Origin: Curtobacterium sp. SGAir0471
GTDB lineage: Bacteria > Actinomycetota > Actinomycetes > Actinomycetales > Microbacteriaceae
Assembly (NCBI RefSeq): GCF_005490985.1
Contig: NZ_CP027869.1
Location: 124,001 to 188,000, forward strand
Direction: 5' to 3'
DNA length: 64,000 bases
Each line of letters starts with the position of its first letter. Position 1 is the stretch's first letter. Under the pieces are notes generated by a model. The model saw only the letters and a list, made by a program, of their open reading frames with translations, had not been told where the DNA came from and did not search any database. The position numbers and the translations under genes were made by a program. Shown piece by piece: positions 14,808-60,656 of the stretch.

Positions 14808-14845
14808 ACGGGAGGCGCGGTGCCGGCTGGCACCGCGCCTCCCGT
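14808..14845. repeat. dispersed palindrome, copy 1
   Basis: Arms of 17 nt (ACGGGAGGCGCGGTGCC and its complement) around GGCT. It lies 20 nt after the lysS stop. It is the same sequence family as the copies at 20721, 21864, 28625, 41418, 51044, 55981, 58128 and 60615. Confidence 0.9.
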
Positions 14846-14892
14846 CCGTCCACCGGTGCAGTTCCGGGCAGGTGGCGGTCACCGGAGCGAGG

Positions 14893-14898
14893 TACGAT
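14893..14898 (+). promoter_or_regulatory. -10 element TACGAT of a leaderless small gene
   Basis: TACGAT ends 6 nt before GTG 14905, with no Shine-Dalgarno before that start. Confidence 0.5.
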
Positions 14899-14904
14899 GC
14901 TGCG

Positions 14905-15108
14905 GTGCCAGAGGGAGTCGTGACCGGGATCATCTTCGCCGTGACGCCGACCATCGTCGTCGGCCTGATCTTCTGGTTCGTGATGCGCGCGATCATGCGC
15001 GCGGACCGCACCGAGCGGTCCGCCTACGCGAAGGTCGAGGCCGAGGAGCGCGCGCGGTACGAGCGCGAGCACGGCCGCCCCGCTCCCGCGCCGACCTCCG
15101 CGGAGTAG
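14905..15108 (+). CDS. small single-pass membrane protein
   Basis: A 67-aa protein with one TM helix (about residues 5-27) followed by a charged cytoplasmic helix and a Pro/Ala tail. The start GTG 14905 is supported by the TACGAT hexamer 6 nt upstream. I do not recognise a named family. The TM-plus-basic-amphipathic-helix layout fits a small membrane regulator or assembly factor, but this is a description only. Confidence 0.65.
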   Translation: MPEGVVTGIIFAVTPTIVVGLIFWFVMRAIMRADRTERSAYAKVEAEERARYEREHGRPAPAPTSAE

Positions 15109-15169
15109 TCCAGCGCAGGAGCCCGCGCCGTCCCGCGTCACCCGCCGTTCACCGACGGGTGCTGCACTC

Positions 15170-15301
15170 GTGCGCGTGGACGCACGACCGACCGACCCGG
15201 CCGACCTCGACCCCGAGGACGCCTTCGGGCACTCGGTGCTGCCCGATCCCGCCCGTGACGCCGTCTGGTCCGACGGGGACGACGACGACATCGACGTCTG
15301 A
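15170..15301 (+). CDS. very small acidic protein with a W-S-D-G motif
   Basis: A 43-aa reading frame from GTG 15170, with an alternative GTG at 15176. It is strongly acidic and ends with PARDAVWSDG followed by a run of Asp. The W-S-D-G ending recurs in the small gene at 24009 (PASDTIWSDG), which is the main argument that it is translated. No Shine-Dalgarno or clear -10 is seen. Function unknown. Confidence 0.4.
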   Translation: MRVDARPTDPADLDPEDAFGHSVLPDPARDAVWSDGDDDDIDV

Positions 15302-15364
15302 GCGTCCGTCGTCGGTCACCGGGCGTTCACCGTGGCGTCGCCGGACGGGGTGAGCATCGTCCGC

Positions 15365-15496
15365 ATGTCCATCACGCACGCCTTCACCGGCCGTAGCCTC
15401 GTCGGCGACATCGAGAGCGAGTACGACGAGTTCGACCGCGACGCCGATCTCGAGACCTCCAAGCGACGGGACGGGTGGCTCGAACCCTCCTGGTGA
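15365..15496 (+). CDS. very small acidic protein before an intrinsic terminator
   Basis: A 43-aa reading frame from ATG 15365, with an alternative in-frame GTG at 15350, rich in Asp and Glu and ending in W-L-E-P-S-W. A strong T-run terminator begins 22 nt after its stop, which argues that this strand is transcribed here. I recognise no family. Confidence 0.45.
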   Translation: MSITHAFTGRSLVGDIESEYDEFDRDADLETSKRRDGWLEPSW

Positions 15497-15517
15497 CACC
15501 GACTCCTGACGATCTTC

Positions 15518-15566
15518 GGGGTACGACGCCCGGATCACGACGATCCGGAACGCCGTACCCCTTTTT
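15518..15566 (+). terminator. intrinsic terminator with T-run
   Basis: Outer arms GGGGTAC (15518-15524) and GTACCCC (15555-15561) and inner arms around CGGATC/GATCCG form a long stem, followed at once by five T residues. This is the only classic T-tailed terminator in the left half of the window. Confidence 0.85.
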
Positions 15567-15842
15567 CGTGTCCGCTCCGCGCTGCACCCCGGGGTACACA
15601 CTTGCGATCGGTGATGAAACATCCCTGCAACACCGGAAACACGGCGACATCCCCTTGTGCGCGGGCATCGGCCGGGTCCATGCTGGCGTCGAGCATGTAC
15701 CCCGCGGGGGACAGTTCGACGGGTGAAGCACGACGTTCCCTGGGAATCGATCCGATCGGTTTGTGGGGTACACCTCGGGACCGCTTTACTCATCAGCACC
15801 CCCCAACGAGGCCATCACCGTCGAACCGCAGGGAGAGTCACC
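15567..15842 (+). other. leader region of the sigma factor gene
   Basis: A 276-bp stretch without a gene I can support. The heptamer GGGGTAC or its complement occurs at 15591, 15697 and 15765, besides the two arms of the terminator just upstream. These could be operator sites or remnants of duplication. A GGGAGAG Shine-Dalgarno precedes the ATG at 15843. Confidence 0.4.
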
Positions 15843-16913
15843 ATGACGATCGCGACCGCAGCACCGAAGACGACGACCACTGGCACCACCGCGCGCCGCG
15901 GCAAGAAAACCGCAGCCGCGAAGACCGCGGACGCCGCGGTGGAGACCACCACGCTCGACACCGAGGTCGAGGCCGACGAGCAGCTCGCGGGTGTCCGCGG
16001 CGCCTCGGTCGACCAGGTCGGCGACTACCTGCGCCACATCGGCCGCCTCTCGCTCCTGACCGCCGAGGAGGAGGCGGACATCGCCCGCCGCATCGAGGTC
16101 GGCCTGTTCGCCGAGGAGAAGCTCGCCACCGAGGCCGGCATCGACAAGACCCTGCAGCGCGAACTGCGCTGGCTCGTCCGCGACGGTGAGCGCGCCAAGG
16201 AGCGCATGATCACCTCGAACCTCCGCCTCGTCGTGAGCATCGCGAAGCGCTACTCGCAGCGCGGCCTGCCGTTCATGGACGTCATCCAGGAGGGCAACCT
16301 CGGTCTGGTCCGTGCGGTCGAGAAGTTCGACTTCACCCAGGGCTACAAGTTCTCGACCTACGCCACCTGGTGGATCCGCCAGGCGATCTCGCGTGGTCTC
16401 GCCGACAAGGCGCGCACCATCCGCATCCCGGTGCACACCGTCGAGCTCATCAACAAGATCTCGCGCACCGAGCGTGACCTGACCGTCGACCTCGGCCGTG
16501 CGCCGATGCCCGACGAGGTCGCCGCCGAGCTCAGCATGAGCACCGAGGAGCTCCTCGACCTGAAGGGCCGCTCGCACGAGCCGGTGTCGATCCACACCGT
16601 CGTCGGCGACTCCGACGACAGCGAGCTCGGCGACTTCATCGAGGACGAGGACGCCGCGAGCCCGAACGAGCTCACCGAGACGACGCTCCTGCACCGCGAC
16701 ATCCGCTCCATCGTCGCCGAGCTGCCGAGCGACGAGGCCAACGTGATCCGCATGCGCTACGGCCTGGACGACGACAAGCCGATGACGCTCGACGAGATCT
16801 CGAAGATCGTGCACACCACGCGCCAGGCGGTCAGCCGCGTCGAGTCGCGTGCGAAGCTGCGCCTGTTCGCGAAGGCCGTGAGCCAGGACATGCAGCTGTA
16901 CCTGACCGACTGA
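15843..16913 (+). CDS. SigB-like group 2 RNA polymerase sigma factor
   Basis: A 356-aa sigma-70 family protein. About 50 low-complexity Ala/Thr/Lys residues replace region 1.1. Then come region 1.2 (VGDYLRHIGR), region 2 with FSTYATWWIRQAISR for -10 recognition, region 3 and region 4. The length and LGDFIEDEDA segment match group 2 (SigB/HrdB-like) factors rather than a 450-500 aa RpoD. Region 4.2 reads TRQAVSRVESRAKLRLF, where primary factors have R-E-R-I-R-Q-I-E, so -35 recognition may differ. ATG 15843 has a good Shine-Dalgarno. An alternative is that this is the main sigma factor of the lineage, but I consider that less likely. Confidence 0.85.
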   Translation: MTIATAAPKTTTTGTTARRGKKTAAAKTADAAVETTTLDTEVEADEQLAGVRGASVDQVGDYLRHIGRLSLLTAEEEADIARRIEVGLFAEEKLATEAGIDKTLQRELRWLVRDGERAKERMITSNLRLVVSIAKRYSQRGLPFMDVIQEGNLGLVRAVEKFDFTQGYKFSTYATWWIRQAISRGLADKARTIRIPVHTVELINKISRTERDLTVDLGRAPMPDEVAAELSMSTEELLDLKGRSHEPVSIHTVVGDSDDSELGDFIEDEDAASPNELTETTLLHRDIRSIVAELPSDEANVIRMRYGLDDDKPMTLDEISKIVHTTRQAVSRVESRAKLRLFAKAVSQDMQLYLTD

Positions 16914-16999
16914 GGTCAGCAGGCTTCGGCCGGGGTCTCGACCTCGGCACGGGGAACCGGGCCGTCCTGTGGGAAGGCGGTCCGGTGGGGTGATGGGAC

Positions 17000-17028
17000 G
17001 GCCCGTCCAGGCACTGCCTGGGCGGGCC
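17000..17028. terminator. bidirectional terminator between sigma factor and nadK
   Basis: 14-bp arms (17000-17013 and 17015-17028, GGCCCGTCCAGGCA) with one wobble pair and a minimal loop. It is placed between two convergent genes. Confidence 0.65.
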
Positions 17029-17055
17029 ACTCCGCTGTCCGGGCGCCGGTCGGCG

Positions 17056-17988
17056 CTAGTCCTCGAGCTCGCGGCCGAGCTTCTGGCGCAGGTCCTGCGG
17101 GATGAGCTCGATGAGCTGGTCCGGGCGGACCGGCAGGTCGAGCAGGCTGAGCTTCACCCGGCCGGTGCGTCCGTGGCGCTCGGCGTCCAGGCGCACGACG
17201 CTGCCGGCGTCCTTCCGGAGCCGGATGTCGATCTGCGCCCCGGTCGCGACCTCGCCCACGACGAGCCCGTCCACCTCGAGGGCGGCGCTCCGCGTGCTCT
17301 CGGCGATGTCGAAGCGGTAGCGCTCCCGCGCCGCCAGGACCACGGCGCGGTCGATGCCCGCCATCGGGGCGACCGGCGTCACCACGGAGCCCGACAGTGC
17401 CGGGGACAGCACGGGCCCGCCGGCCGCGTAGTTGTACGCGGTGGACCCCGCCGGGGTCGCGGCGACGACGGCGTCCGCGCGGTAGTAGCCGTAGCCGAGC
17501 CCGTTCACGCTGAGGTCGGCGGAGACCTGTCCGGCGCCGGGGCGTCGCACGATCGTCAGGTCGTTGAACGCCAGGTAGTCCGTGCGGGCGCCGCTCCAGG
17601 ACAGCCGGGCCTCGAGCGCATGGTGCGGCTCGAGCTGGTACTCACCGGCGGACAGTCGGTCGAGCGCGGCCTCGAGCTCGGGCGGCTCGATCTCGACCAG
17701 GAACCCGACGTTGCCGTAGTTCACGCCGAGCACGGGGACCGGGCGCTTCGCCACGAGTCGCATCGCGCCGAGCATCGTGCCGTCCCCGCCGAGCGCGACG
17801 ACGAGGTCGACCTGGTCGGTGAAGTCGTCGTCGCCGATCACCTCGACGTCACCGCCGATGCGCTGCGCGTCCGCCCGCCGGGCCACGAGCCGTCCCGCAC
17901 CCGACGCGTTCCACCGCTGCAGGGTCGTGATGGACTCACGCACGTTCTTGGTGGGGTGGACGACGAGGCCGACGACGGGCTGCTCCAT
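17056..17988 (-). CDS. nadK: NAD kinase
   Basis: Phosphorylates NAD+ to NADP+. 310 aa. The family GGDGT motif is at residues 67-71, followed by the NYGNVGFL block and the glycine-rich GSTAYNYAAGGP segment of the NAD-binding domain. ATG 17988 has no Shine-Dalgarno but a TACGAT hexamer 6 nt upstream. It is convergent with the sigma factor and divergent from clpC. Confidence 0.96.
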   Translation of the reverse strand: MEQPVVGLVVHPTKNVRESITTLQRWNASGAGRLVARRADAQRIGGDVEVIGDDDFTDQVDLVVALGGDGTMLGAMRLVAKRPVPVLGVNYGNVGFLVEIEPPELEAALDRLSAGEYQLEPHHALEARLSWSGARTDYLAFNDLTIVRRPGAGQVSADLSVNGLGYGYYRADAVVAATPAGSTAYNYAAGGPVLSPALSGSVVTPVAPMAGIDRAVVLAARERYRFDIAESTRSAALEVDGLVVGEVATGAQIDIRLRKDAGSVVRLDAERHGRTGRVKLSLLDLPVRPDQLIELIPQDLRQKLGRELED

Positions 17989-17994
17989 GCCCAG

Positions 17995-18000
17995 ATCGTA
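17995..18000 (-). promoter_or_regulatory. -10 element TACGAT of leaderless nadK
   Basis: On the minus strand TACGAT ends 6 nt before the ATG; there is no Shine-Dalgarno. Confidence 0.5.
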
Positions 18001-18138
18001 CCCGGCGACGCCGAGCCGACTCCTGACGGGAGCCGTGGCGAGCGGTCCGTCGGGGGCGCCGTCGCGGGGCGGTGTGCCCGGTGCGCAACGAGGTCACGCC
18101 CACGGCGAACAGGGGCAGCCCTCCGGGGGTCCGCTGGT

Positions 18139-18144
18139 TAGTCT
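18139..18144 (+). promoter_or_regulatory. candidate -10 TAGTCT for clpC
   Basis: TAGTCT lies about 45 nt upstream of the clpC ATG, and the GGGAG ribosome site follows. I saw no convincing CtsR or HspR operator around it. Confidence 0.35.
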
Positions 18145-18189
18145 CGATGTACGTCACCGAGCTCCCACGAGCCCGGCAAGGGAGAGCAC

Positions 18190-20706
18190 ATGTTCGAGAG
18201 ATTCACCGACCGAGCCCGTCGTGTTGTCGTCCTCGCTCAAGAAGAAGCGAAGATGCTCAACCACAACTACATCGGCACCGAGCACATCCTCCTCGGCCTC
18301 ATCCACGAGGGCGAGGGCGTCGCCGCCAAGGCGTTGGAGTCGCTCGGCATCTCGCTCGATGCCGTCCGCGAGCAGGTCCAGGACATCATCGGGCAGGGCC
18401 AGCAGCAGCCGACCGGGCACATCCCGTTCACGCCGCGCGCCAAGAAGGTGCTCGAGCTGTCCCTGCGCGAGGCGCTGCAGCTCGGCCACAACTACATCGG
18501 CACCGAGCACATCCTGCTCGGCCTGATCCGTGAGGGCGAGGGCGTCGCCGCCCAGGTCCTCGTCAAGCTCGGCGCGGACCTCAACCGCGTCCGTCAGCAG
18601 GTCATCCAGCTCCTGTCCGGCTACCAGGGCAAGGAAGCGGTCGCCGTCGGCGGCGAGCAGCAGCAGAACGCCCAGCAGGGTTCGCAGGTCCTCGACCAGT
18701 TCGGTCGGAACCTCACCCAGGCCGCGCGCGACGCCAAGCTCGACCCGGTCATCGGGCGCGAGAAGGAGATGGAGCGGGTCATGCAGATCCTCTCCCGCCG
18801 CTCCAAGAACAACCCCGTCCTGATCGGTGAGCCGGGCGTCGGCAAGACCGCGGTCGTCGAGGGCCTCGCCCAGGCGATCGTCAAGGGCGACGTCCCGGAG
18901 ACGCTGAAGGACAAGCAGCTCTACTCGCTCGACCTCGGGTCGCTCATCGCCGGGTCCCGCTACCGCGGTGACTTCGAGGAGCGCCTCAAGAAGGTCACGA
19001 AGGAGATCCGCACCCGCGGCGACATCATCGTCTTCATCGACGAGATCCACACGCTCGTCGGTGCCGGCGCTGCCGAGGGTGCGATCGACGCCGCGTCGAT
19101 CCTCAAGCCGCTCCTCGCCCGCGGTGAGCTGCAGACGGTCGGTGCGACCACGCTCGACGAGTACCGCAAGCACTTCGAGAAGGACGCCGCACTCGAACGC
19201 CGCTTCCAGCCGGTGCAGGTCAACGAGCCGTCGCTGCCCCACGCGATCAACATCCTCAAGGGCCTCCGCGACAAGTACGAGGCGTTCCACAAGGTGTCCA
19301 TCACCGACGGCGCGATCGTCGCCGCGGCGAACCTGGCGGACCGCTACGTGCAGGACCGCTTCCTGCCGGACAAGGCCATCGACCTGATCGACGAGGCCGG
19401 CGCCCGCCTGCGTCTGTCGATCCTGTCGGCGCCGCCGGAGCTCCGCGAGTTCGACGAGAAGATCTCGACGGTCCGCGGGCAGAAGGAAGCCGCGATCGAG
19501 GAGCAGGACTTCGAGAAGGCCGCGAGCCTGCGCGACGAGGAGAAGAAGCTCCTCGGCGAGCGTCTGCGCCTCGAGAAGCAGTGGCGTGCGGGTGACGTCG
19601 CCGCGTCCGGCACCGTCGACGAGGGCATCATCGCCGAGGTGCTGGCGCAGGCCACGGGCATCCCGGTGTTCAAGCTCACCGAGGAGGAGACCTCGCGTCT
19701 CGTCTTCATGGAGAAGGCCCTGCACGAGCGCGTCATCGGTCAGGAAGAGGCGATCTCGGCCCTCTCGAAGACGATCCGCCGCACCCGCGCCGGCCTCAAG
19801 GACCCGAACCGCCCCTCGGGCTCGTTCATCTTCGCCGGCCCCACCGGCGTCGGGAAGACCGAGCTCGCCAAGGCGCTCGCCGAGTTCCTGTTCGACGACG
19901 AGGGTGCGCTGATCTCCCTCGACATGTCGGAGTTCGGTGAGAAGCACACGGTCTCGCGACTCTTCGGTGCCCCTCCCGGGTTCGTCGGGTTCGAGGAGGG
20001 CGGCCAGCTCACCGAGAAGGTGCGCCGCAAGCCGTTCTCCGTGGTCCTGTTCGACGAGATCGAGAAGGCCCACCCGGACATCTTCAACTCGCTGCTGCAG
20101 GTCCTCGAAGAGGGTCGCCTGACCGATGGTCAGGGCCGCGTCGTCGACTTCAAGAACACCGTCATCATCATGACCACGAACCTCGGTTCGCAGGGCATCG
20201 CGGGTGGCCCGGTGGGCTTCCAGGTCGAGGGCGACTCGGCCGTCGGCTACGACCGCATGCGCTCGAAGGTGAACGAGGAGCTCAAGAAGCACTTCAAGCC
20301 CGAGTTCCTGAACCGCGTCGACGACACGATCGTGTTCCCGCAGCTCTCGCAGTCCGAGCTGCTGCAGATCGTGGACCTGTTCGTGAAGCGCCTGTCGGAC
20401 CGCCTGCTGGACCGCGACATGACGGTGGAGCTCACGCTCGCCGCCAAGGAGCAGCTCATCAAGGTCGGCTTCGACCCCGCACTCGGCGCCCGTCCGCTGC
20501 GTCGCGCGATGCAGCACGAGGTCGAGGACCAGCTGTCCGAGCACATCCTGCAGGGTGAGCTCAACGCCGGTGACCACGTGAAGGTCGACTTCGCCGAGGG
20601 GAAGTTCCAGTTCGAGACCGGGCGTCAGCCGGGTCGCGAGGAGGTCCTCGCCGGGGCTGCCGCGGTCGAGGCCGCGGAGACCCCGCAGGGCGAGATCGAG
20701 TCCTAG
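18190..20706 (+). CDS. clpC: ATP-dependent Clp protease ATPase ClpC
   Basis: Hsp100 unfoldase of 838 aa that feeds substrates to ClpP. Two N-terminal Clp repeats each contain the [14 protein letters not shown] sequence (about residues 20-35 and 95-110). AAA-1 has Walker A GEPGVGKT at 213-220. A UVR-type coiled insertion (about 415-450) precedes AAA-2 with GPTGVGKT at 550-557 and a C-terminal D2-small domain. The [15 protein letters not shown] pore-loop region is intact. ATG 18190 has GGGAG upstream. It is monocistronic, ending 15 nt before palindrome copy 2. Confidence 0.97.
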
Positions 20707-20720
20707 GACTCCTCCACACG

Positions 20721-20766
20721 ACGGACGGGAGGCGCGGTGCCAGCTGGCACCGCGCCTCCCGTCCGT
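20721..20766. repeat. dispersed palindrome, copy 2 (perfect)
   Basis: A perfect 46-bp palindrome centred between 20743 and 20744, 15 nt after the clpC stop. The core is identical to copy 3. It sits between convergent clpC and the alpha/beta hydrolase gene. Confidence 0.95.
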
Positions 20767-21002
20767 TCGTGCGGCGACCACTTGTGCGGGTTCCGGCGTG
20801 CGCGGCGGACGCGACCCCCGGGCGGGGGGTACCGTTGTTGCTGCGAGGGTTCCCCCAACACCTCGCGAACGGCGTCCGGCTGGTTCCCCCAACAGGTCGG
20901 ACGTCCGTGGCCCCGGTCTCCCCCCGACCGGGGCCACGCTTCGTTCCGGGCCACGCTTCGTTCCGGGCCCCGCTTCGTTCCGGGGGTGCCTCGCCCCGGC
21001 AG
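20767..21002. other. gene-free 236-bp stretch with hairpin and tandem repeats
   Basis: No gene is supported. It holds the motif GTTCCCCCAACA twice (near 20850 and 20882). A hairpin has 12-bp arms GTGGCCCCGGTC (20907-20918 and 20926-20937). A 17-bp unit CCACGCTTCGTTCCGGG is repeated three times at 20934-20984. The hairpin could terminate transcription from either side. Confidence 0.6.
20934..20984 (+). repeat. 3 x 17-bp tandem repeat
   Basis: Units at 20934-20950, 20951-20967 and 20968-20984. The first two are identical and the third differs at one base. Confidence 0.9.
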
Positions 21003-21812
21003 TCAGCCGAGGGCCGCGGCGAAGTCGCGGACGGCGCGCTCCCAGCGCTCCGGGTCTTCGTTCCACTCGAGCGTGTGCCGGGCGTGCGTGAACGTCTCGA
21101 CCCGGGCACCACGTGCGCGCCGTGCAGCGACGTCGGTCGCGGCCACGAGGGGGTCGGCCGCCGAGTGCAGCAGCAGTGTCGGCGTGCCCTCGTCCTGCCA
21201 GCGCGTCACGGACAGCGGGTAGGGCACACCGGCCAGGCGGCTGAGGCCCGGTGTGGTCGCGATGCGTCCGGCGACGACGCCGACGGCCTCTGGGAAGCGG
21301 GCGGTCCGCACGGCGCCGCGCAGGGCCGATCGGACGTCGAGCAGGGGCGCGACCCCGACGATGCCGTCGACCGGTGTGCGTGCCGCGGCAGCGGAGGCGG
21401 CGAGGGCGCCGGCGGACCAGCCCTGGAGCACCACGCGCTCTGCCCCACGGGCCCGGGCAGCGTGCGCGGCGGCCGCGACCCGGTCGACGGCGGCGGGGTC
21501 GAGGGACCGCAGCGGCAGCGCGCTGGTGTCGATCACCTGGTTCGAGGCGCCGAGCTCCCGCCAGACCCGGAGGCCACGGAGGATCTGCTGCGGACCGAGC
21601 GACTGCCCGTGCACGTGCACGACGTGGGTGCGTCCGACGACGCCGTCCGGTTCCTCGCCGGGGACGTCGTGCTCGTCGGTCCAGACCAGCTCGGACTCCG
21701 GAGGCACGAAGGGTGCGGGGCGGAGGAGGCGGCGTGCGGCGGCGGCCCCGAGGGCGACGCTCCCGGCGGAGGCGATCACGGTGCCGGTGACGGCGGTGCG
21801 GACGAGCTGCAT
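21003..21812 (-). CDS. alpha/beta hydrolase with N-terminal anchor
   Basis: A 269-aa predicted serine hydrolase. An N-terminal hydrophobic segment (about 5-25) may anchor it or act as a signal. The nucleophile elbow is G-W-S-A-G, the acid is probably the Asp in SAADPL, and the histidine is in ARHTLEW near the C-terminus, giving a full catalytic triad. The substrate cannot be read from sequence. The start is uncertain; ATG 21812 fits the hydrophobic segment best. Confidence 0.75.
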   Translation of the reverse strand: MQLVRTAVTGTVIASAGSVALGAAAARRLLRPAPFVPPESELVWTDEHDVPGEEPDGVVGRTHVVHVHGQSLGPQQILRGLRVWRELGASNQVIDTSALPLRSLDPAAVDRVAAAAHAARARGAERVVLQGWSAGALAASAAAARTPVDGIVGVAPLLDVRSALRGAVRTARFPEAVGVVAGRIATTPGLSRLAGVPYPLSVTRWQDEGTPTLLLHSAADPLVAATDVAARRARGARVETFTHARHTLEWNEDPERWERAVRDFAAALG

Positions 21813-21854
21813 GGTGCCCACCCTGCCAGCGGGACGTGTGCGTGCGGTCCGGAC

Positions 21855-21909
21855 CACGACAGAACGGGAGGCGCGGTGCCAGCTGGCACCGCGCCTCCCG
21901 TCCGTCGTG
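21855..21909. repeat. dispersed palindrome, copy 3
   Basis: The core 21864-21901 is a perfect 38-bp palindrome, and outer CACGAC/GTCGTG arms extend it to 21855-21909. It lies 19 nt after the stop of the minus-strand SRPBCC gene (read in that gene's direction). Confidence 0.95.
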
Positions 21910-21927
21910 TTGCTGGTCCTCGGTGAC

Positions 21928-22380
21928 CTAGGCCTGGACGTCGCCGCGCCAGCCCGGCTCGGTCGGGGCGTTCTCGACGCGCTCCTTGTAGTTCTGCAGG
22001 TCCTTCTTGACGGCGTGGCCGCCGACGCCGACGGCGGAGCCGAGCTTCTCGAGCAGGCCCGAGGGCTCCCAGTCGATCTGCGCGGTGACGCGCGTCTCGT
22101 TGTCGGACAGCTTGTGGAAGGTCACCACGCCGGCATGGTCGACGTCACCGTCCTTCACGGTCCACGCGACGCGCTCGTCGGGGTGCTGCTCGGTGATGAC
22201 GGCGCGGAACTCGCGCTCCTGCCCGGCGACCTTGACCGTCCAGTCGGTGGTCTTGTCGTCGACCTGGACGATCTTCTCGACCTCGTCGAGGAAGTGCGGG
22301 AACTCCTCGAACCGGGTCCACTGGTCGTAGGCCTGGCGGACGGGGACGTTGACGTCGACGGTCTCGATGATCTGGGGCAT
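21928..22380 (-). CDS. SRPBCC (START-like) family protein
   Basis: A 150-aa single-domain protein of the polyketide-cyclase/START-like fold. It has the N-terminal beta strand and helix PVRQAYDQWTRFEEFPHFL, the central AWTVKDGDVDHAGVVTFHKL strands and a long C-terminal helix. This fold binds hydrophobic ligands; the ligand here is unknown. ATG 22380 has GAAGGAGCGAG upstream. It looks monocistronic. Confidence 0.85.
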   Translation of the reverse strand: MPQIIETVDVNVPVRQAYDQWTRFEEFPHFLDEVEKIVQVDDKTTDWTVKVAGQEREFRAVITEQHPDERVAWTVKDGDVDHAGVVTFHKLSDNETRVTAQIDWEPSGLLEKLGSAVGVGGHAVKKDLQNYKERVENAPTEPGWRGDVQA

Positions 22381-22546
22381 GCTCGCTCCTTCGTTTCGTC
22401 GTGCTCTTCGGGTTCGGCATCGACGCTATGCCGCGGCGGCTGGAGGCCCTCCAGGGCGGTGTCCCCCTGCTGCGGCGGACGGCCCTCCGGGCGGCGTCCC
22501 GCTGCTGCGCCGAGCAGCCACTGGGCGGGGCCCGTCTGCTGCGCCG

Positions 22547-22552: not shown

Positions 22553-22559
22553 CGACGGG

Positions 22560-23186: not shown

Positions 23187-23192
23187 GTGCGC

Positions 23193-28335: not shown

Positions 28336-28602
28336 ATGACCGAAGACGACGGGTACCGGTACGTCCTCGCGAGCTTCGTAGGGGAGCGGGACGGTATGGC
28401 GCTCGAACTGCACGACGCTGACCACTGCTGCATCGCCGAGGTATTCGAGGACGATGCCACCGGCGCATGTTCCCTCTCGATCGCCGACGGCGCGGCGGTC
28501 CCGATCGACCGGGTCTGCGACCTGCTGGCGCGGGCTGCCGCCGAGTTCCCGCAGGTGGCCGCGAGCTGGCCGACCGCGCCACAGGACCGGGTGGACCCCT
28601 GA
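28336..28602 (+). CDS. small acidic protein of unknown function
   Basis: An 88-aa acidic, soluble protein with no TM helix. CAGGAG precedes adjacent GTG and ATG codons (28333 and 28336), and spacing favours the ATG. Two adjacent cysteines (DADHCCIAEV) lie near residue 32. I recognise no family. It follows the tRNA-Ser terminator, so it needs its own promoter, and palindrome copy 4 lies 23 nt after its stop. Confidence 0.6.
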   Translation: MTEDDGYRYVLASFVGERDGMALELHDADHCCIAEVFEDDATGACSLSIADGAAVPIDRVCDLLARAAAEFPQVAASWPTAPQDRVDP

Positions 28603-28624: not shown

Positions 28625-28670
28625 CCGGACGGGAGGCGCGGTGCCAGCGCGCCCCGCGCCTCCCGTCCGG
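28625..28670. repeat. dispersed palindrome, copy 4
   Basis: 17-nt arms (CCGGACGGGAGGCGCGG and complement) keep the family sequence, but the centre is changed so that the inner TGCC/GGCA pairs are lost. It lies 23 nt after a stop codon. Confidence 0.9.
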
Positions 28671-41417: not shown

Positions 41418-41457
41418 GACGGGAGGCACGGTGCCCACGGGCCCCGTGCCTCCCGTC
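41418..41457. repeat. dispersed palindrome, copy 5
   Basis: Arms GACGGGAGGCACGG (41418-41431) and complement (41444-41457). It carries the A-T variant GGCACGG/CCGTGCC of the family, and the centre is altered. It lies 15 nt after a stop codon. Confidence 0.9.
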
Positions 41458-41471: not shown

Positions 41472-41516
41472 CCTGGAGGCGAGGGGCGGTCCCGCACCGT
41501 GCCTCCCGTCCGGGCG
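41472..41516. repeat. degenerate second palindrome copy
   Basis: The right arm (GCACCGTGCCTCCCGTCCGG, about 41493-41512) keeps the family sequence, while the left arm (GGAGGCGAGGGGCGG) has drifted. It lies directly behind copy 5. Confidence 0.65.
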
Positions 41517-50137: not shown

Positions 50138-51040
50138 GTGGACACCGTCATCGTCATCGGAGAAGCCCTGGTCGACGTGGTCGACCGCCCCGAGGGTCGC
50201 GTCGAACACCCGGGTGGCAGCCCGATGAACGTCGCCGTCGGCCTCGCCCGGCTCGGCCGGTCGGCGCGACTCGTCTGCGCACTCGGCGACGACGACCGCG
50301 GCGCCTCGATCCGGGCGCACGTCGGCGCGAGCGACGTCGAGGTCGACGCGACCGCGATCGACCGGACCTCGACGGCCGTCGCGACCATCGGCGAGGACGG
50401 CGGCGCGTCCTACGAGTTCGACCTCGACTGGCGGCTCGACCCGGTGCACGTGCCCGCTGCGACGCCGCTCGTCCACGTCGGCTCCATCGGCGCCGTGCTC
50501 GAACCCGGGGCACGCGCCGTGCTCGAGGCCCTGCGCGTCCGTCCGACCGACGCACTCGTCTCGGTCGACCCGAACGTCCGGCCGTCGATCACGCCGGACC
50601 GGGACGCCGTGCTCGCGACCCTCGAGCCGCTGTTCGCCGAGGCCGACGTGGTCAAGCTCAGCGACGAGGACGCCGCGTGGCTCTGGCCGGACCGCAGCGT
50701 CGACCAGGTGCTCGACGGCCTGCTCGCCTACGGCACGGCCCTCGCCGCGGTGACGCTCGGCGGAGCGGGGTGTGCGATGGCGTCCACTCGGGCGCGTATC
50801 ACCGTGCCGGCGCCGCGCGTCGAGGTCGCGGACACGATCGGTGCGGGGGACTCGTTCATGGCGGGGCTGCTCGCGAGTGTGCTGGCACGGGGGAGCGCCC
50901 CGACCGCGCTCGACGCCGACGAGCTCGGTCGCCTGGCGTCGCTCGCCCTGGCCTGTGCCGCGATCACGGTGTCCCGCCCGGGCGCCGACCCACCGACCCG
51001 CGCCGAGCTCCCGACCGGGGTCGTGTCGGACGTCGACTGA
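50138..51040 (+). CDS. PfkB-family carbohydrate kinase (fructokinase-like)
   Basis: A 300-aa ribokinase-fold kinase. Signature 1 HPGGSPMNVAVGLARLG (about 25-41) and signature 2 DTIGAGDSFMAG (about 230) with the catalytic Asp are intact. The fructokinase-like N-terminus suggests a free hexose substrate; tagatose-6-phosphate is an alternative given the nearby galactosamine locus. GTG 50138 is set by the -10-like hexamer 6 nt upstream. Confidence 0.88.
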   Translation: MDTVIVIGEALVDVVDRPEGRVEHPGGSPMNVAVGLARLGRSARLVCALGDDDRGASIRAHVGASDVEVDATAIDRTSTAVATIGEDGGASYEFDLDWRLDPVHVPAATPLVHVGSIGAVLEPGARAVLEALRVRPTDALVSVDPNVRPSITPDRDAVLATLEPLFAEADVVKLSDEDAAWLWPDRSVDQVLDGLLAYGTALAAVTLGGAGCAMASTRARITVPAPRVEVADTIGAGDSFMAGLLASVLARGSAPTALDADELGRLASLALACAAITVSRPGADPPTRAELPTGVVSDVD

Positions 51041-51043
51041 CGG

Positions 51044-51061
51044 CGGACGGGAGGCGCGGGG
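51044..51061 (+). repeat. half copy of the dispersed palindrome
   Basis: Only the left arm (CGGACGGGAGGCGCGGGG) is present, 3 nt after a stop codon. The expected right arm is missing and a decayed region follows. Confidence 0.75.
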
Positions 51062-51085
51062 CTGCTGGCGTGACGCCGGTGACGG

Positions 51086-54115: not shown

Positions 54116-54204
54116 GGGGATCCTCTTACGTCATCGGAAGGGTGCTGCGGGGGAGGGGTGACCGGACGGCGGCGGAGGGGGGACCGCCGCCGTCCGGGGT
54201 CGGG

Positions 54205-55928: not shown

Positions 55929-55935
55929 GGACAGC

Positions 55936-55949
55936 AGTGTACATGTACA
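55936..55949. promoter_or_regulatory. GntR operator and -10 element
   Basis: TGTACATGTACA (55938-55949) is a perfect 12-bp palindrome. The minus-strand -10 TACACT (55936-55941) overlaps it and ends 7 nt before the GntR ATG, so bound repressor would block the promoter. Confidence 0.7.
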
Positions 55950-55980
55950 AATCCTGTCCAGTACCACTCGTCCCCGCACG

Positions 55981-56026
55981 ACGGACGGGAGGCACGGTGC
56001 CAGCCGGCACCGTGCCTCCCGTCCGT
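55981..56026. repeat. dispersed palindrome, copy 6
   Basis: 21-nt arms around AGCC, with the paired variant GGCACGG/CCGTGCC instead of GGCGCGG/CCGCGCC. It lies 23 nt after the glgX stop (in the minus direction). Confidence 0.95.
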
Positions 56027-56048
56027 CTCGTCCTGCGTGCCGTCCCCG

Positions 56049-58067
56049 CTACACCAGCGCCGTGAAGGACGCGTCGCGCACGAGCAGCGTCGTCGCGTCG
56101 CCCTCGACGGCCTGGTCCGGGTCGCTCGACAGGCCGAGCGACCACGAACCGCCGCCCGGCTTCTCCGGCAGCGTGAACTCGACCGTGGTGTCCGACGCGT
56201 TGAGCAGCGCCGCGACGGTGTCGTCCCCACGCTGCAGCACGAGAATCACCGCGCGGTTGCCGCCGTCTGCCCAGTCGCCGTCCTCGAAGCCCTGCGCGTC
56301 GGCGCGGAGCACCTGCACCGTGGACTCCGAGTCGCCGGGGGCCGTACGGTACCACTCCGGGCGGAGCGCCTCGTGCTCCTTGCGGAACGCGATCGCCGCG
56401 GTGGTGAAGGCGAGCAGGTCACGGTCGGCGGCGTGCCAGTCGAACCACGAGATCTCGTCGTCCTGGCAGTACGCGTTGTTGTTGCCGCCCTGCGAGCGGG
56501 CGATCTCGTCGCCGCCCAGGATCATCGGGACACCCGCCGAGAGCAGCAGCGTGCCGAGGAAGTTCCGGCGCTGGCGGTCGCGGTAGTCGTTCACGGCGCC
56601 GTCGTCGGTCGGGCCCTCGATGCCGCCGTTGAACGAGGTGTTGTTGCTCTCGCCGTCGTTGTTGTCCTCGCCGTTGGCCTCGTTGTGCTTCTCGGCGTAC
56701 ATCGTCAGGTCGGCCAGGGTGAAGCCGTCGTGCGCGGTGACGAAGTTCACCGAGCAGAGCGGGGAACGACGGGAGCCTTCGTACACGTCGGGGGAGCCGA
56801 GGGCGCGCTGGACGGCGTCGCCGAGCGTGCCCTCGTCACCGCGCCAGAACGCGCGGAGGTCGTCGCGGTACTTGCCGTTCCACTCCGACCAGTCGGCCGG
56901 GAAGCCACCGACCTGGTACCCGGCGGTGTCCCACGGCTCGGCGATCATCTTCACCTCGCGGAGCACCGGGTCCTGGTGGATGATGTCGAGGAACGCGGAG
57001 TGCTTCTCGGCCTCGCCGTCCTGGCGGGTCAGCGTCGTCGCCAGGTCGAAGCGGAAGCCGTCGACGTGCATCTCCTCGACCCAGTAGCGCAGCGAGTCGG
57101 TGATGAGCCCGAGCGCCGACGGGTGCGACACGTTGAGCGAGTTGCCCGTGCCGGTCGTGTCGAAGTAGTTGCCCTCGTCGCCCTCGACCAGGCGGTAGTA
57201 CGAGGCGTTGTCGATGCCCTTGAAGGACAGCGTCGGGCCCATGTGGTTGCCCTCGGCGGTGTGGTTGTAGACGACGTCCATGATGACCTCGAGCCCCGCG
57301 GCGTGCAGGGCCTTGACCATCTCCTTGAACTCGGTGACCTGCTGGCCGGCGGTGCCCGAGGACGAGTACTCGTCGTGCGGGGCGAAGAAGCCGATGCTGT
57401 TGTAGCCCCAGTAGTTCCGGAGGCCCTTGTCGGCCAGGGTCGAGTCCTGCACGAACTGGTGCGTCGGCAGCAGCTCGACCGACGTGACGCCGAGGTCGGT
57501 CAGGTGCTTGATCGCCGCCGGGTGCGCCAGGCCCGCGTAGGTGCCGCGGATCTCCTCGGGCACGTCGGGGTGCTGCTTCGTGAAGCCCTTGACGTGCACC
57601 TCGTAGACGACGGTGTCGCGGTACGGGATGTGGAGCAGCGTGTCCCCGTCCCAGTCGAACTCGCGGTCGGCGACGACGGACTTCGGCATGGCGCTCGCCG
57701 AGTCGGTCTCGTCGATCTGCTCGGGGTTGTCCATGTCGTGCCCGAACAGCGCCTGGCCCCACTCGTACGAGCCGTCGATCGCGGTGGCGTAGGGGTCGAG
57801 GAGGAGCTTCGCCGGGTTGTGGCGGAGGCCGTTCGCCGGGTCCCACGCGCCGTGCACGCGGAAGCCGTAGCGGGTGCCGACGGTCACGTCCGGCACGACG
57901 TCGTGGAACGTGTACCCGGTGCGGTTGCGGAGCTCGGTGCGGTGCTCGGTGCCGTCCTCGTCGAAGCGGCAGAACTCCACGCGCTCGGCGGTGCTGGAGA
58001 AGAGGGCGACGTTGGCGCCGCCCTCGACGAGGGTGACACCGAGGGGCGTGCGGGAGGAAGAGGTCAT
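56049..58067 (-). CDS. glgX: glycogen debranching enzyme GlgX
   Basis: A 672-aa GH13 isoamylase-type enzyme that hydrolyses alpha-1,6 branches of phosphorylase-limit glycogen. A CBM48 domain (about 5-95) precedes the GH13 barrel. The barrel carries DVVYNHTAEG, the nucleophile DGFRFDLAT, the acid/base EPWD and TAHDGFTL. An acidic Asn/Asp insert (NGEDNNDGESNN) is normal for GlgX. ATG 58067 has no clear Shine-Dalgarno. Confidence 0.94.
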   Translation of the reverse strand: MTSSSRTPLGVTLVEGGANVALFSSTAERVEFCRFDEDGTEHRTELRNRTGYTFHDVVPDVTVGTRYGFRVHGAWDPANGLRHNPAKLLLDPYATAIDGSYEWGQALFGHDMDNPEQIDETDSASAMPKSVVADREFDWDGDTLLHIPYRDTVVYEVHVKGFTKQHPDVPEEIRGTYAGLAHPAAIKHLTDLGVTSVELLPTHQFVQDSTLADKGLRNYWGYNSIGFFAPHDEYSSSGTAGQQVTEFKEMVKALHAAGLEVIMDVVYNHTAEGNHMGPTLSFKGIDNASYYRLVEGDEGNYFDTTGTGNSLNVSHPSALGLITDSLRYWVEEMHVDGFRFDLATTLTRQDGEAEKHSAFLDIIHQDPVLREVKMIAEPWDTAGYQVGGFPADWSEWNGKYRDDLRAFWRGDEGTLGDAVQRALGSPDVYEGSRRSPLCSVNFVTAHDGFTLADLTMYAEKHNEANGEDNNDGESNNTSFNGGIEGPTDDGAVNDYRDRQRRNFLGTLLLSAGVPMILGGDEIARSQGGNNNAYCQDDEISWFDWHAADRDLLAFTTAAIAFRKEHEALRPEWYRTAPGDSESTVQVLRADAQGFEDGDWADGGNRAVILVLQRGDDTVAALLNASDTTVEFTLPEKPGGGSWSLGLSSDPDQAVEGDATTLLVRDASFTALV

Positions 58068-58127
58068 GACGCCACTTGTAGTGGTCGGCGGCTGTGTCCT
58101 CGGGCCGGGTGCGTACCCCGGCGACGG

Positions 58128-58181
58128 GACGACGGACGGGAGGCGCGGTGCCGGCTGGCACCGCGCCTCCCGTCCGTCGTC
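58128..58181. repeat. dispersed palindrome, copy 7 (longest)
   Basis: 25-nt arms around GGCT, the longest copy. It lies 43 nt after the msrA stop in the minus direction, between msrA and glgX. Confidence 0.95.
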
Positions 58182-58223
58182 CGGTCACGTCGTCACGTGA
58201 CCGTCGCGATCACCCGCCGGCGG

Positions 58224-58745
58224 TCAGACCGAGGCGGTCGCCTCGTCGCGGTGCGGGAGCTTCCAGCCCGGGCGCACGAAGTGGCAGGTGTACCCGGCGG
58301 GGTACTTCTCGAGGTAGTCCTGGTGCTCCTCCTCGGCCTCCCAGAAGTCGCCGGCGGGCTCGACCTCGGTGACGACCTTGCCCGGCCAGATGCCGGATGC
58401 GTCGACGTCCGCGATGGTGTCGAGCGCGACCTGGCGCTGCTCGTCGTCCTGGTAGAAGATCGCCGAGCGGTAGCTGCGGCCGACGTCGTTGCCCTGCCGG
58501 TCCTTGGTGGACGGGTCGTGGATCTGGAAGAAGAACTCGAGCAGGTCACGGTACGAGATCTGTGACGGGTCGAAGACGATCTCGACGGCCTCGGCGTGGT
58601 CGCCGTGGTTCCGGTACGTGGCGTTCGGGGTGTCGCCGCCGGAGTACCCGACGCGCGTGCTGATGACACCCGGACGGCGACGGAGGAGCTGCTGCGCTCC
58701 CCAGAAGCAGCCGCCGGCGAGGATGGCGGTCTCGGTCGTGGTCAT
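58224..58745 (-). CDS. msrA: peptide methionine-S-sulfoxide reductase MsrA
   Basis: A 173-aa enzyme that reduces Met-S-sulfoxide in proteins. The catalytic Cys is C13 in GCFWG. The conserved [12 protein letters not shown] and [15 protein letters not shown] blocks are present. CAGGAGGCC precedes ATG 58745. Confidence 0.96.
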
Positions 58746-58939
58746 GGTGGCCTCCTGGGGTCGTCGTACCGCTGGCTGCGGCACCGTCGGGTGCAACCAC
58801 CGCGTGGGTGCAGGTGTTCCCGCGGGTCCATGGTGCCGTGTCGACCCGCGTGGCGGCTGTCCGACGGCCCGCGCGGAGCGCCCGTTGTCCACCGACCGCC
58901 GCCACGCCGGAGGCCCTCGCCGGTGTCGTCCCGGTGCTC

Positions 58940-58961
58940 TACCATTCGAACACACGTTCGA
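58940..58961 (+). promoter_or_regulatory. LexA SOS box overlapping a -10 element
   Basis: TCGAAC-ACAC-GTTCGA (58946-58961) matches exactly the actinobacterial/Gram-positive LexA site (CGAAC-N4-GTTCG). TACCAT (58940-58945) directly abuts it as -10. Flanking A and T extend the symmetry to ATTCGAA/TTCGAAT. Confidence 0.75.
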
Positions 58962-58975
58962 ATCGGGAGGTCGAG

Positions 58976-59236
58976 ATGATGTTGACGCACGAGGTCGCCA
59001 CGGTGTGGTGGGAGCGCGGCGTGCCGGACCGGATGGTGTGGCGTGACCGGCGTTGGCGGGTGAGCGACACCCCGACGCGGCTGACGGCGACGGCCGAGTT
59101 CCTGCCGTCGGCGATGACCCACGCGCCCGAGCGCACGGTCGGCTGGCGCTTCCAGGTCAGTGCCGAGGGTGACGCGGTCGTGGTCGACATCGTGCCCGAG
59201 GGGGACGGCTGGGTGGTCGCCCGCACCTGGCGCTGA
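58976..59236 (+). CDS. small DUF6504-like protein under SOS control
   Basis: An 86-aa protein with a Trp/Arg-rich start ([27 protein letters not shown]) typical of the DUF6504 type that accompanies DinB/ImuB-like Y-family polymerases in actinobacteria. GGGAGG precedes adjacent ATG codons at 58976 and 58979. The LexA box upstream supports a DNA-damage role. No polymerase gene is adjacent here. The family assignment is from memory of the motif and should be treated as likely, not certain. Confidence 0.7.
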
Positions 59237-59270
59237 CCGCGGGACCGGTCGTGCGCCGACGCGGCCCGGG

Positions 59271-59894
59271 TCAGTGGGTGAGGGCGTGTGCGAGCCCACG
59301 GACGAGCACCGCGCGGGTACGGTCGGTGGGGGAGCCGTCCGGATCGCTCCAGGCCGCGCGCCCGAGTCCGTCGACCAGGGCGAGCACGGCGTCCGCGGCC
59401 ACCGCGGTCGGCTCGGCGAGTTCGATGCCGTGTCGTGCGGTCCAGCGGGTGATGCCGGCCGTGACGCCGTCGTGCCAGAGGGTCCGCTCGGCGGCGACGA
59501 GCGTGTCGTCCCCGTCGAGGGCGGTGCGGCTGACGGCCTCGAGCAGTCGGAAGCGCTCCGGCTCCCGGCGGACCAGGTCCAGGTACGCGGCCACCCCGGC
59601 GTCGAGCGCCTCGACCAGCTCGTCGTGCTGGTCCGCGGCGGCGAGCACGCGGGGCAGGACGTCCCGCGCCTGTCGCTCGAGGAGCGCGACGACGAGGTTC
59701 CGCCGGGCGCCGAAGACGTAGTGCACGACACCGTGTGCGACGCCGGCGCGCTCGGCGACCGCCCGCGTGGTGAGGCCCGGCAGGCCGTGGTCGCGCACGA
59801 CGAGGGCGGCGGCGTCGAGGAGCTCGTCGCGCCGTTCCCCTCTGCTGCGGTACGCCCGCGTCTGCTGGTCCTGCGTCTGCTGGTCCTGCGTCAT
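59271..59894 (-). CDS. TetR-family regulator
   Basis: A 207-aa regulator. The helix-turn-helix is LTTRAVAERAGVAHGVVHYVFGARRNLV (about 40-67), and a TetR_C-type ligand domain follows. The N-terminal tail carries a duplicated TQDQQ unit from a 15-bp tandem repeat. ATG 59894 (GTG 59897 also possible) has TACGCT 7 nt upstream. It is divergent from the GNAT gene, its most likely target. Confidence 0.9.
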   Translation of the reverse strand: MTQDQQTQDQQTRAYRSRGERRDELLDAAALVVRDHGLPGLTTRAVAERAGVAHGVVHYVFGARRNLVVALLERQARDVLPRVLAAADQHDELVEALDAGVAAYLDLVRREPERFRLLEAVSRTALDGDDTLVAAERTLWHDGVTAGITRWTARHGIELAEPTAVAADAVLALVDGLGRAAWSDPDGSPTDRTRAVLVRGLAHALTH

Positions 59895-59901
59895 CACAGG
59901 A

Positions 59902-59907
59902 AGCGTA
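59902..59907 (-). promoter_or_regulatory. -10 element TACGCT of the tetR-type gene
   Basis: Minus-strand TACGCT, 7 nt before ATG 59894. Confidence 0.4.
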
Positions 59908-59984
59908 CGGGTCGCCTGCAGCGAGCAGCGGGAAGCTGATCTGGCCGAGCGGCCGAATGTGCCACCGCCAGCAGAGGAGTCCCG

Positions 59985-60599
59985 ATGTCGATCACCGTCC
60001 GCCCCGCGTCCCGGTCCGAGGTGCCCGCAGCAGCGGCCGTGCTGGCCGAGGCCTTCGCCGCCGATCCCGTCCTCGCCGAGATCCGCCCGTCACGGTCGGG
60101 CGAGGACCGCACCGCCGTGCTCGGCGCGCTCTTCACGGCACTCGTCCGCTCGGTCCCCGAGCGTGCCCGCGCGCTCGACGTCGCGGTCGACGGCGATCGT
60201 GTGGTCGGTGCAGCGTTCTGGCAGGCGCCACGACCGCACGTGGGTGGCACGGTCGCGTTCCTCCGGCAGGTCCCCGAGCTCCTCCGGGTCCTCGGGGTCG
60301 GTGGTGCGTTCCGCGCGCTGCGGCACCTGCGCCGGATGGACCGTGCACGACCGGACGCGCCGCACTGGTACCTCGCCGAGATCGGCGTCGCCGCCGCGGC
60401 CCGGGGTCAGGGGGTCGGCGGGCTCCTGCTCGAGCACGCGCTGCGGCGGGTCGACGGACTCGGTGCGGACGCGTACCTCGAGTCCTCGACGCCGCAGAAC
60501 CGACGGCTCTACCGTCGCCACGGCTTCGGTGACGGGGCACCGATCACCGGCTTCCGTGCGGCGGCGCCCGTCTCGATGTGGCGACCGGCGGTCGCCTGA
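59985..60599 (+). CDS. GNAT acetyltransferase
   Basis: A 204-aa GNAT protein. Motif A reads LAEIGVAAAARGQGVGGLLLEHAL (about 128-151) with the Q/R-x-x-G-x-G/A acetyl-CoA loop, and motif B is YLESSTPQNRRLYRRHGF. The long N-terminal half and overall layout resemble toxin/antibiotic-resistance type GNATs of actinobacteria. AGAGGAG precedes ATG 59985. It lies 90 bp from the divergent tetR-type gene. Confidence 0.88.
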   Translation: MSITVRPASRSEVPAAAAVLAEAFAADPVLAEIRPSRSGEDRTAVLGALFTALVRSVPERARALDVAVDGDRVVGAAFWQAPRPHVGGTVAFLRQVPELLRVLGVGGAFRALRHLRRMDRARPDAPHWYLAEIGVAAAARGQGVGGLLLEHALRRVDGLGADAYLESSTPQNRRLYRRHGFGDGAPITGFRAAAPVSMWRPAVA

Positions 60600-60610
60600 A
60601 CCGTGCGACG

Positions 60611-60656
60611 ACGAACGGGAGGCGCGGTACCAGCCGGTACCGCGCCTCCCGTCCGT
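60611..60656. repeat. dispersed palindrome, copy 8
   Basis: Core 60615-60652 with the paired variant GGTACC/GGTACC replacing GGTGCC/GGCACC. It lies 12 nt after the GNAT stop, between convergent genes. Confidence 0.95.

What the first reader, a model, noticed from the sequence alone, without database searches (positions are those of the whole stretch)
14808..60656. Dispersed family of near-identical palindromes placed just after stop codons
Eight full copies (14808, 20721, 21855, 28625, 41418, 55981, 58128, 60611), one half copy (51044) and one degenerate copy (41472) share the arm ACGGGAGGCGCGGTGCC. The full copies lie 12-43 nt downstream of a stop codon, and none lies inside a gene. Arms differ by paired changes (GGCGCGG/CCGCGCC to GGCACGG/CCGTGCC; GGTGCC/GGCACC to GGTACC/GGTACC), so complementarity itself is conserved. 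They could be T-less terminators or 3' end stabilisers, but identity this high between unrelated loci also points to a REP-like element that is copied or homogenised.
Basis: partly seen in the sequence, partly recalled or inferred. Interest (0 to 1): 0.75.

Follow-up and report, generated by a model that had tools for sequence, protein, structure and literature searches.

The report
Dispersed 3'-end hairpins in Curtobacterium
The genome carries a large family of near-identical hairpin-forming DNA palindromes just after genes, found almost only in the bacterial genus Curtobacterium and not linked to the usual transposase; they probably end or protect gene transcripts, and their stems appear to be copied over one another.

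Summary
The eight palindromes, the half copy and the degenerate copy are there, far above chance, and belong to a genome-wide family: 165 exact base-arm palindromes, reversed control 0. It is nearly confined to Curtobacterium: 59 of 60 genus genomes (11-202 copies), 3 of 388 other genomes of the family (one copy each). Copies lie in convergent and codirectional gaps, median 22.5 nt from a stop, rarely in divergent gaps, without a U-tract. Pairing is kept while inner stems change. No RAYT/IS200-type (Y1) transposase was found in 60 genus genomes. Against close species orthologous copies are more alike than paralogues; against a farther clade sites are shared, but orthologous stems are hardly more alike than random copies, and one inner stem is clade-specific. 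Best reading: a REP-like family of bidirectional U-less 3'-end hairpins (terminators or 3' stabilisers) whose stems are overwritten in place by family copies. RNA function is inferred: no RNA data, and a strand-bias test was neutral. A second palindromic element nested in the arm was found in passing.

The parts
14808..14845 (.). full palindrome, GGTGCC type; 19 nt after the stop of a class II tRNA synthetase gene (tRNA-synt_2, 13283-14788 +)
20721..20766 (.). full palindrome (23-bp arms); 38-nt core 20725-20762; after a ClpC-type AAA gene (18253-20706 +); in G167 the same gene end carries the CCGGTACC stem
21864..21901 (.). full palindrome, 26 nt downstream of the stop of the minus-strand gene 21928-22380
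28629..28666 (.). full palindrome with inner mismatches, 26 nt after the stop at 28602
41419..41456 (.). full palindrome, GGCACGG type, between two convergent ABC-permease genes; hairpin also present in G203 and G188
41472..41509 (.). degenerate second copy, 53 nt further on; a counterpart is present in G203 and G188
51047..51063 (.). half copy (left arm only), 6 nt after the stop of a pfkB-type gene (50138-51040 +)
55985..56022 (.). full palindrome, GGCACGG type, 26 nt after the stop of the gene 56049-58067 (-) (CBM_48 and alpha-amylase domains); paired arm changes in G203 and G188, interrupted by a second element in G164
58136..58173 (.). full palindrome, 50 nt after the stop of a peptide methionine sulfoxide reductase gene (PMSR, 58224-58745 -); in G167 the same gene end carries the CCGGTACC stem
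60615..60652 (.). full palindrome, GGTACC type, between convergent genes (15 and 22 nt from the two stops)

Best explanation
These are members of a Curtobacterium-specific, REP-like family of long hairpins lying just after stop codons. Shown: placement at 3' ends, lack of a U-tract, base arms GACGGGAGGC/GCCTCCCGTC, inner arms that vary but tend to stay paired, a GGTC box at fixed spacing, no Y1 transposase found, sites shared between species. Inferred: in the transcript the hairpin ends or protects the 3' end of the mRNA (U-less terminator or exonuclease barrier), and between convergent genes it serves both directions. Inferred: sequence likeness is kept by overwriting stems in place from other family copies (gene conversion or template switching using the constant base arms), which changes both arms at once and lets one inner stem spread in a clade.
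For: Copy number 165 with reversed control 0. Intergenic copies in the own sample: convergent 21, codirectional 21, divergent 1, where intergenic bases predict 14.3, 18.7 and 10.0; median distance to a stop 22.5 nt. Other strong hairpins take equivalent places: 17 family and 25 other hairpins in 62 convergent gaps, shuffles 0.3. Covariation score 0.175 against 0.078 shuffled, 0 of 500. Folding energies of the eight window copies -48 to -68 kcal/mol, z -5 to -12. GGTC at exactly +9..12 in 50 of 208 flanks, background 0.9%. Collinear gene ends own/G167: both have the family 9, only own 3, only G167 1, neither 85; 5 non-collinear ends dropped. The 9 are 8 distinct hairpins with mean identity 0.775 (my average of the listed differences), random pairs 0.74-0.75. 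CCGGTACC stem: 15-21 copies in 8 genomes, 0-5 in the other 52; three of those 8 were in a tree of one gene and form a 100/100 clade. Three CCGGTACC copies of G167 lie in alignments that run through the hairpin into the own genome, and all three meet a family hairpin with the GCGGTGCC stem.
Against: No RNA data. G-U versus A-C pairs in the sense strand of codirectional copies: 22 against 27, so nothing favours RNA over DNA. Between own, G203 and G188 orthologous hairpins (15, 16 and 11 pairs) are more alike (0.87-0.90) than paralogues (0.75-0.77), so overwriting is not fast. The three aligned CCGGTACC/GCGGTGCC differences are two base pairs plus loop bases, which drift could also give. Within-versus-between sharing of inner arms is significant for own/G167 (p 0.024) and G188/G167 (0.004), not for G203/G167 (0.20) or own against its close relatives. 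In 28 of 43 own copies the two 8-nt inner arms are not exact complements. The count of pairs with two-sided changes (8) was reached in 5 of 500 shuffles and by one slid control.
Confidence: 0.6

Rival explanations
1. Ordinary U-less (I-shaped) terminators under convergent selection: each hairpin arose or drifts on its own, and likeness reflects a sequence preference of RNA polymerase or of a termination factor.
For: Many unrelated hairpins occupy equivalent gaps; site positions are conserved; orthologues are closer than paralogues among near species; U-lacking structured 3' ends are common in Streptomyces clavuligerus (353 of 535 highly structured ends; PMC8269248, passages read).
Against: Base arms and a GGTC box at fixed spacing, 15-21 copies of one stem in one group of genomes, and near-absence in 388 other genomes of the same family and 395 others of the phylum draw point to descent from copied units.
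Confidence: 0.25
2. RAYT-mobilised REP/REPIN elements of the known kind.
For: High copy number, palindromic, extragenic, 3' placement.
Against: PF01797 matches in 0 of 60 genus genomes, while 5 of 14 control genomes rang; no GTAG tag beside the hairpin (flank profile); I noticed no clean empty site (output partly cut).
Confidence: 0.05
3. Double-stranded DNA site for a chromosome-organising or other DNA-binding protein, as proposed for BIMEs (recalled); position after genes only reflects tolerance.
For: No RNA-strand bias; base arms nearly fixed; a divergent-gap deficit can come from selection against promoter damage.
Against: Inner arms change but tend to stay complementary, which a fixed duplex site does not need; non-family hairpins occupy equivalent gaps; in codirectional own copies the outer GGTC box is kept on the stop side (7 of 16) and not on the far side (0 of 16), though G203 and G188 alone each give p 0.66.
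Confidence: 0.15
4. DNA-uptake-type sequence doubled into terminators, as in Neisseria and Pasteurellaceae (recalled).
For: A short recurrent word forms inverted pairs after genes.
Against: 68 of 74 occurrences of GACGGGAGGC in the own sample have a partner arm; uptake words also occur singly in large numbers (recalled).
Confidence: 0.03

Closest known systems
CGTC-tagged REPs (Di Nocera et al. 2013, PMC3733652; abstract, passages and two sections read)
   Same: High-copy palindromes, mostly between convergent and unidirectional ORFs, close to the 3' end of the upstream ORF; reported to lack a dedicated transposase; CGTC often adjoins the hairpin here too
   Different: Those have stems of 8 or 9 bp, an unpaired CGTC at one end and mostly CCA tails, in five phyla that do not include Actinobacteria; here stems are 18 bp or more, CGTC stands on either or both sides and then extends the palindrome, and the host is an actinobacterium
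GTAG REPs / REPINs with RAYT (abstracts seen)
   Same: Dispersed extragenic palindromes in dozens to hundreds of copies
   Different: No GTAG tag, Y1 transposase in 0 of 60 genus genomes
HS-U-lack 3' ends / I-shaped terminators of GC-rich actinobacteria (PMC8269248, passages read)
   Same: Strong GC-rich hairpin without a U-tract
   Different: Not described in the passages I read as one repeated sequence family; no RNA ends are mapped here
BIMEs of enterobacteria (recalled)
   Same: Palindromes with some close pairs; two sites in the own sample have 53-nt doublets
   Different: Mostly single palindromes; no Y1 transposase found

Membership tests
REP (general) | High-copy (>100) extragenic palindrome | tested here: met
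   165 exact base-arm palindromes, control 0; 43 of 53 sampled matches intergenic
REP (general) | Mostly in convergent/unidirectional gaps near stops | tested here: met
   convergent 21, codirectional 21, divergent 1; median 22.5 nt
GTAG REP / REPIN | Unpaired GTAG at one end | tested here: not met
   Outward flank profile reads C-G-(T)-C, not GTAG
GTAG REP / REPIN | RAYT (Y1) transposase in the genome | tested here: not met
   PF01797 in 0 of 1 own and 0 of 60 genus genomes
CGTC REP | Unpaired CGTC at one end only | tested here: inconclusive
   CGTC adjoins at least one side in 94 of 158 copies (34 both sides, 60 one side)
CGTC REP | Stem of 8-9 bp | tested here: not met
   18 pairs in the aligned core, 88.9% of cells paired; window copies fold with longer stems
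Canonical intrinsic terminator | T-rich tail after the hairpin | tested here: not met
   5 or more T in 8: 0 of 205 sense tails
U-less (I-shaped) terminator | Transcripts end at the hairpin | not testable with these tools
   no RNA data
U-less (I-shaped) terminator | Strong hairpin shortly after the stop | tested here: met
DNA-uptake-sequence terminator | The word also common singly | tested here: not met
   68 of 74 arms paired
Mobile element with precise insertion | Clean empty sites / target duplications | tested here: inconclusive
   None noticed by eye; output was partly cut and spacers are often unalignable

The most novel reading that the evidence does not exclude
A transposase-free REP system in an actinobacterium: terminator hairpins are placed early in the genus and thereafter spread not by moving but by being overwritten in situ, both arms at once, by other copies that share the same base arms, so that single stem versions spread through many unrelated gene ends in a clade.
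Probability: 0.45. Interest if true: 0.75.

Novelty: new variant of a known kind. Interest (0 to 1): 0.57.

Why it matters
How REP families stay uniform has been debated since gene conversion was proposed; a 1988 review carries that question in its title (seen only as a reference in PMC12306157), whereas mobilisation by RAYT transposases is now commonly proposed (abstracts). A genus with up to 202 copies a genome and no Y1 transposase found, where the same gene ends keep a hairpin while its stem differs between clades, allows that question to be tested by comparing genomes alone. It would also help explain how a high-GC actinobacterium equips many gene ends with near-identical U-less 3'-end hairpins.

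Tried and rejected
RAYT/IS200 transposase: none found. Uptake-sequence reading: rejected. RNA-strand bias by G-U versus A-C: neutral. Fixed doublet spacing: an attempt with loose limits mostly returned noise; only the 53-nt doublets at 41418 (with G203/G188 counterparts) and L044:6211 look real. De novo repeated hairpin families in three other genera (G035, G109, G118) and in the family-less G189, 100 kb each: only three two-member clusters (one in G189, two in G118), none in G035 or G109; samples are small. Phage records: no match; plasmids: three records. A first orthologue table for G167 included a non-collinear pair (L033:17599) and counted one convergent hairpin twice; I replaced it. One search's own de-duplication printed 7 pairs and 0.761 because two loci share the same sequences; counting loci gives 8 and 0.775. 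One more G167 copy (778448) was left out as ambiguous, because another family copy lies 1.9 kb away and both border the matching own hairpin. I first meant to quote L040:11831 as an exchanged stem, but its hairpins lie at different distances from the stop, so I dropped it. The family-wide covariance search was capped at 37 candidates a genome, so I rest distribution on the pattern searches. Paper searches: 8. No listed title or abstract start was about such a family in Curtobacterium; this says nothing about papers beyond those listings or outside that library.
Full report
WHAT IS THERE. The window lies at 124001-188000 of a single-contig genome of 3,531,991 bases; the window is 71.7% G+C. The eight full copies, one half copy and one degenerate copy are confirmed at the stated places. 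The exact 17-base arm occurs 47 + 50 times in the genome with a reversed control of 0, and 181 + 191 times at up to 2 mismatches with controls 2 + 3.

The constant part is the base of the stem, GACGGGAGGC ... GCCTCCCGTC; the inner eight or so pairs vary. Exact base-arm palindromes: 165 in the own genome, control 0. A 464-kb sample (window plus 20 evenly spaced 20-kb stretches) holds 53 matches at up to 3 mismatches in the 20 base-arm letters, reversed control 0. Of these 43 are intergenic, and 10 are at stretch edges or in called genes: three exact copies at edges, one exact copy in a called gene, six looser matches. That density would extrapolate to roughly 330 intergenic copies per genome (extrapolation).

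PLACEMENT. Of the 43, 21 are in convergent gaps, 21 codirectional and 1 divergent, where intergenic bases would give 14.3, 18.7 and 10.0. The median distance to the nearest stop is 22.5 nt, against 45 for random placement in the same gaps (Mann-Whitney p 0.0045, random positions oversampled). Gene calls are from my own codon-usage caller, not a curated annotation. The hairpins are not alone: of 62 convergent gaps of 30 nt or more, 17 hold a family hairpin and 25 others a different strong hairpin (score 12 or more; shuffles 0.3); codirectional 18 and 16 of 141; divergent 1 and 1 of 63. No sense-strand tail has 5 T in 8 (0 of 205). The eight window copies fold at -48 to -68 kcal/mol.

STRUCTURE IS KEPT. 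On 43 own copies (42 distinct), 18 pairs: 88.9% of cells paired, covariation score 0.175 against 0.078 in shuffles, 0 of 500 as high, and 0.020-0.111 when the partner is slid; the plain count of pairs with two-sided changes (8) was reached in 5 of 500 shuffles and by one slide. The alignment was chosen by base-arm match, so only the inner pairs are independent evidence; pairs 11, 14, 15 and 18 carry 52 of the 59 two-sided cells. Many stems are imperfect: in 28 of 43 own copies the two 8-nt inner arms are not exact complements. A test for RNA-level selection was neutral: in codirectional copies of all sampled relatives the sense strand has 22 G-U and 27 A-C cells.

A COPIED UNIT. Reading outward from the core, CGTC and then, after four free bases, GGTC recur. 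GGTC stands at exactly +9..12 in 50 of 208 flanks (own, G203 and G188; background 0.9%), in codirectional copies 15 of 52 on the stop side and 4 of 52 on the far side (p 0.010). The side difference comes mainly from the own genome (7 of 16 against 0 of 16; G203 and G188 alone each p 0.66), and orthologous copies are not independent.

DISTRIBUTION. Genus: 59 of 60 genomes, 11 to 202 copies, G189 none. Rest of the family: 3 of 388 genomes, one copy each. Phylum draw: 2 of 395 others, one each. Plasmid records: three, two Microbacterium and one Curtobacterium; the two Microbacterium hits sit 11 nt after the same annotated gene, probably one transferred segment. Phages: none. No repeated hairpin family of comparable size turned up in 100-kb samples of G189 and three other genera.

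NO USUAL TRANSPOSASE. PF01797 (Y1, the RAYT/IS200 family): 0 in the own genome and 0 of 60 genus genomes, with the control ringing in 5 of 14 known genomes. Other transposase families were not searched.

HOW THE COPIES EVOLVE. Against close relatives a family hairpin stands at the same gene end in 22 of 30 (G203) and 20 of 25 (G188) cases, counted by gene end, so convergent hairpins can count twice. Orthologous hairpins are 0.90 and 0.88 identical (G203-G188 0.87; 15, 16 and 11 pairs), paralogues within a genome 0.75-0.77, and the outer flank only about 0.65 even at the best of nine shifts. So sites are inherited and stems mostly vertical at this depth, though some already differ wholesale: at the end matching G203 75819 (80-kb coordinates), G203 has the stem GCTCCCCACC where G185 and G165 have GCGCGGTGCC, with flanks 90-95% identical. 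Against G167 (genes about 84% identical), among collinear gene ends 9 have the family in both, 3 only in own, 1 only in G167 and 85 in neither (Fisher p 1.4e-9; 5 non-collinear ends dropped). The 8 distinct shared hairpins differ by 5-14 of 40 bases (mean identity 0.775 by hand), little above random family pairs (0.74-0.75). The stem CCGGTACC occurs 15-21 times in eight genomes and 0-5 times in the other 52; three of the eight were in a 21-genome tree of one gene and group with 100/100 support. In G167 three such copies (near 445920, 2677697 and 2726917) lie in alignments that run through the hairpin into the own genome, and each meets a family hairpin with the GCGGTGCC stem there, two base pairs and loop bases different; beside the third, a neighbouring G167 hairpin has kept GCGGTGCC. 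A fourth match is ambiguous. Within-versus-between sharing of inner arms is significant for own/G167 and G188/G167, not for G203/G167 or between own and its close relatives. I read this as replacement in place by other family copies on a time scale longer than the split of the closest species. Pair-by-pair drift cannot be excluded for the shared sites that differ by only two inner pairs.

MECHANISM. Shown: a genus-specific family, 3'-end placement, kept pairing, shared sites, a clade-specific stem, no Y1 enzyme found. Inferred: bidirectional U-less termination or 3' protection, and overwriting by gene conversion or template switching. In Streptomyces clavuligerus, highly structured RNA 3' ends without a U-tract were common (353 of 535), and the authors suggest they may include I-shaped terminators or 3' ends of Rho-dependent transcripts (PMC8269248, passages read); either would suit these hairpins.

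COMPARISON WITH THE KNOWN. The nearest described class is the CGTC-tagged REPs, which lie after genes and lack a dedicated transposase; the survey names five phyla for them, and the word Actinobacteria does not occur in its text (PMC3733652, abstract, passages and two sections). Their stem length (8 or 9 bp) is not met here, and the one-ended unpaired tag is unclear. A 2025 REP survey lists three actinobacterial genomes in the passage I saw and does not name Curtobacterium; it separates REPs from terminators by the T-rich tail (PMC12306157, abstract and passages). Hence a new variant of a known kind, not a filed member of either tagged class.

Noticed in passing
L131-L150 (one per genome); own genome 224890, 2200102, 3430709: A second palindromic element of about 60 nt (GCGCGCCCCGC...GCGGGGCGCGCCGACCGAGCCTGCGAGG) sits inside the left arm of a family hairpin at one point in 19 of 20 loci examined. 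Its tail is found in 53 of 60 genus genomes, up to 13 copies. No Rfam match to it in five loci. Its mover is unknown.
   Followed up: partly
L043:12780, L033:5392, L037:1971, L047:694: Another dispersed long hairpin family (arms with GGTTCGATGTCGG / CCGACATCGAACC, with variations) at convergent gene ends.
   Followed up: no
L048:17760, L048:616, L130:7520, L130:17923, L125:9667: A family of roughly 60-nt hairpins beginning ACGCAACG, ACGCAACC or ACGCGACG at gene ends in own and G188.
   Followed up: no
L035:190, L048:5282, L048:3574; G188 gene end orthologous to L046:17766: Hairpins with CTGTCGC(T/C)TT arms; one stands in G188 where own and G203 have a family hairpin.
   Followed up: no
L059, L060, L062: At the gene end matching window 56049 three species carry an unrelated hairpin (GAGCAGGAATGGTCGGGT...ACCCGACCATTTCTGCTC).
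   Followed up: no
window 20870-20942 +: A 6C RNA motif (Rfam RF01066, 49.9 bits) about 100 nt beyond the 20725 hairpin.
   Followed up: no
L132:2706-2763: msiK RNA motif (Rfam RF01747) in a relative.
   Followed up: no
L209 (G167), compared with window 20600-22400: G167 lacks the minus-strand gene 21003-21821, so that two family hairpins with different stems stand 72 nt apart.
   Followed up: no
   Followed up: partly
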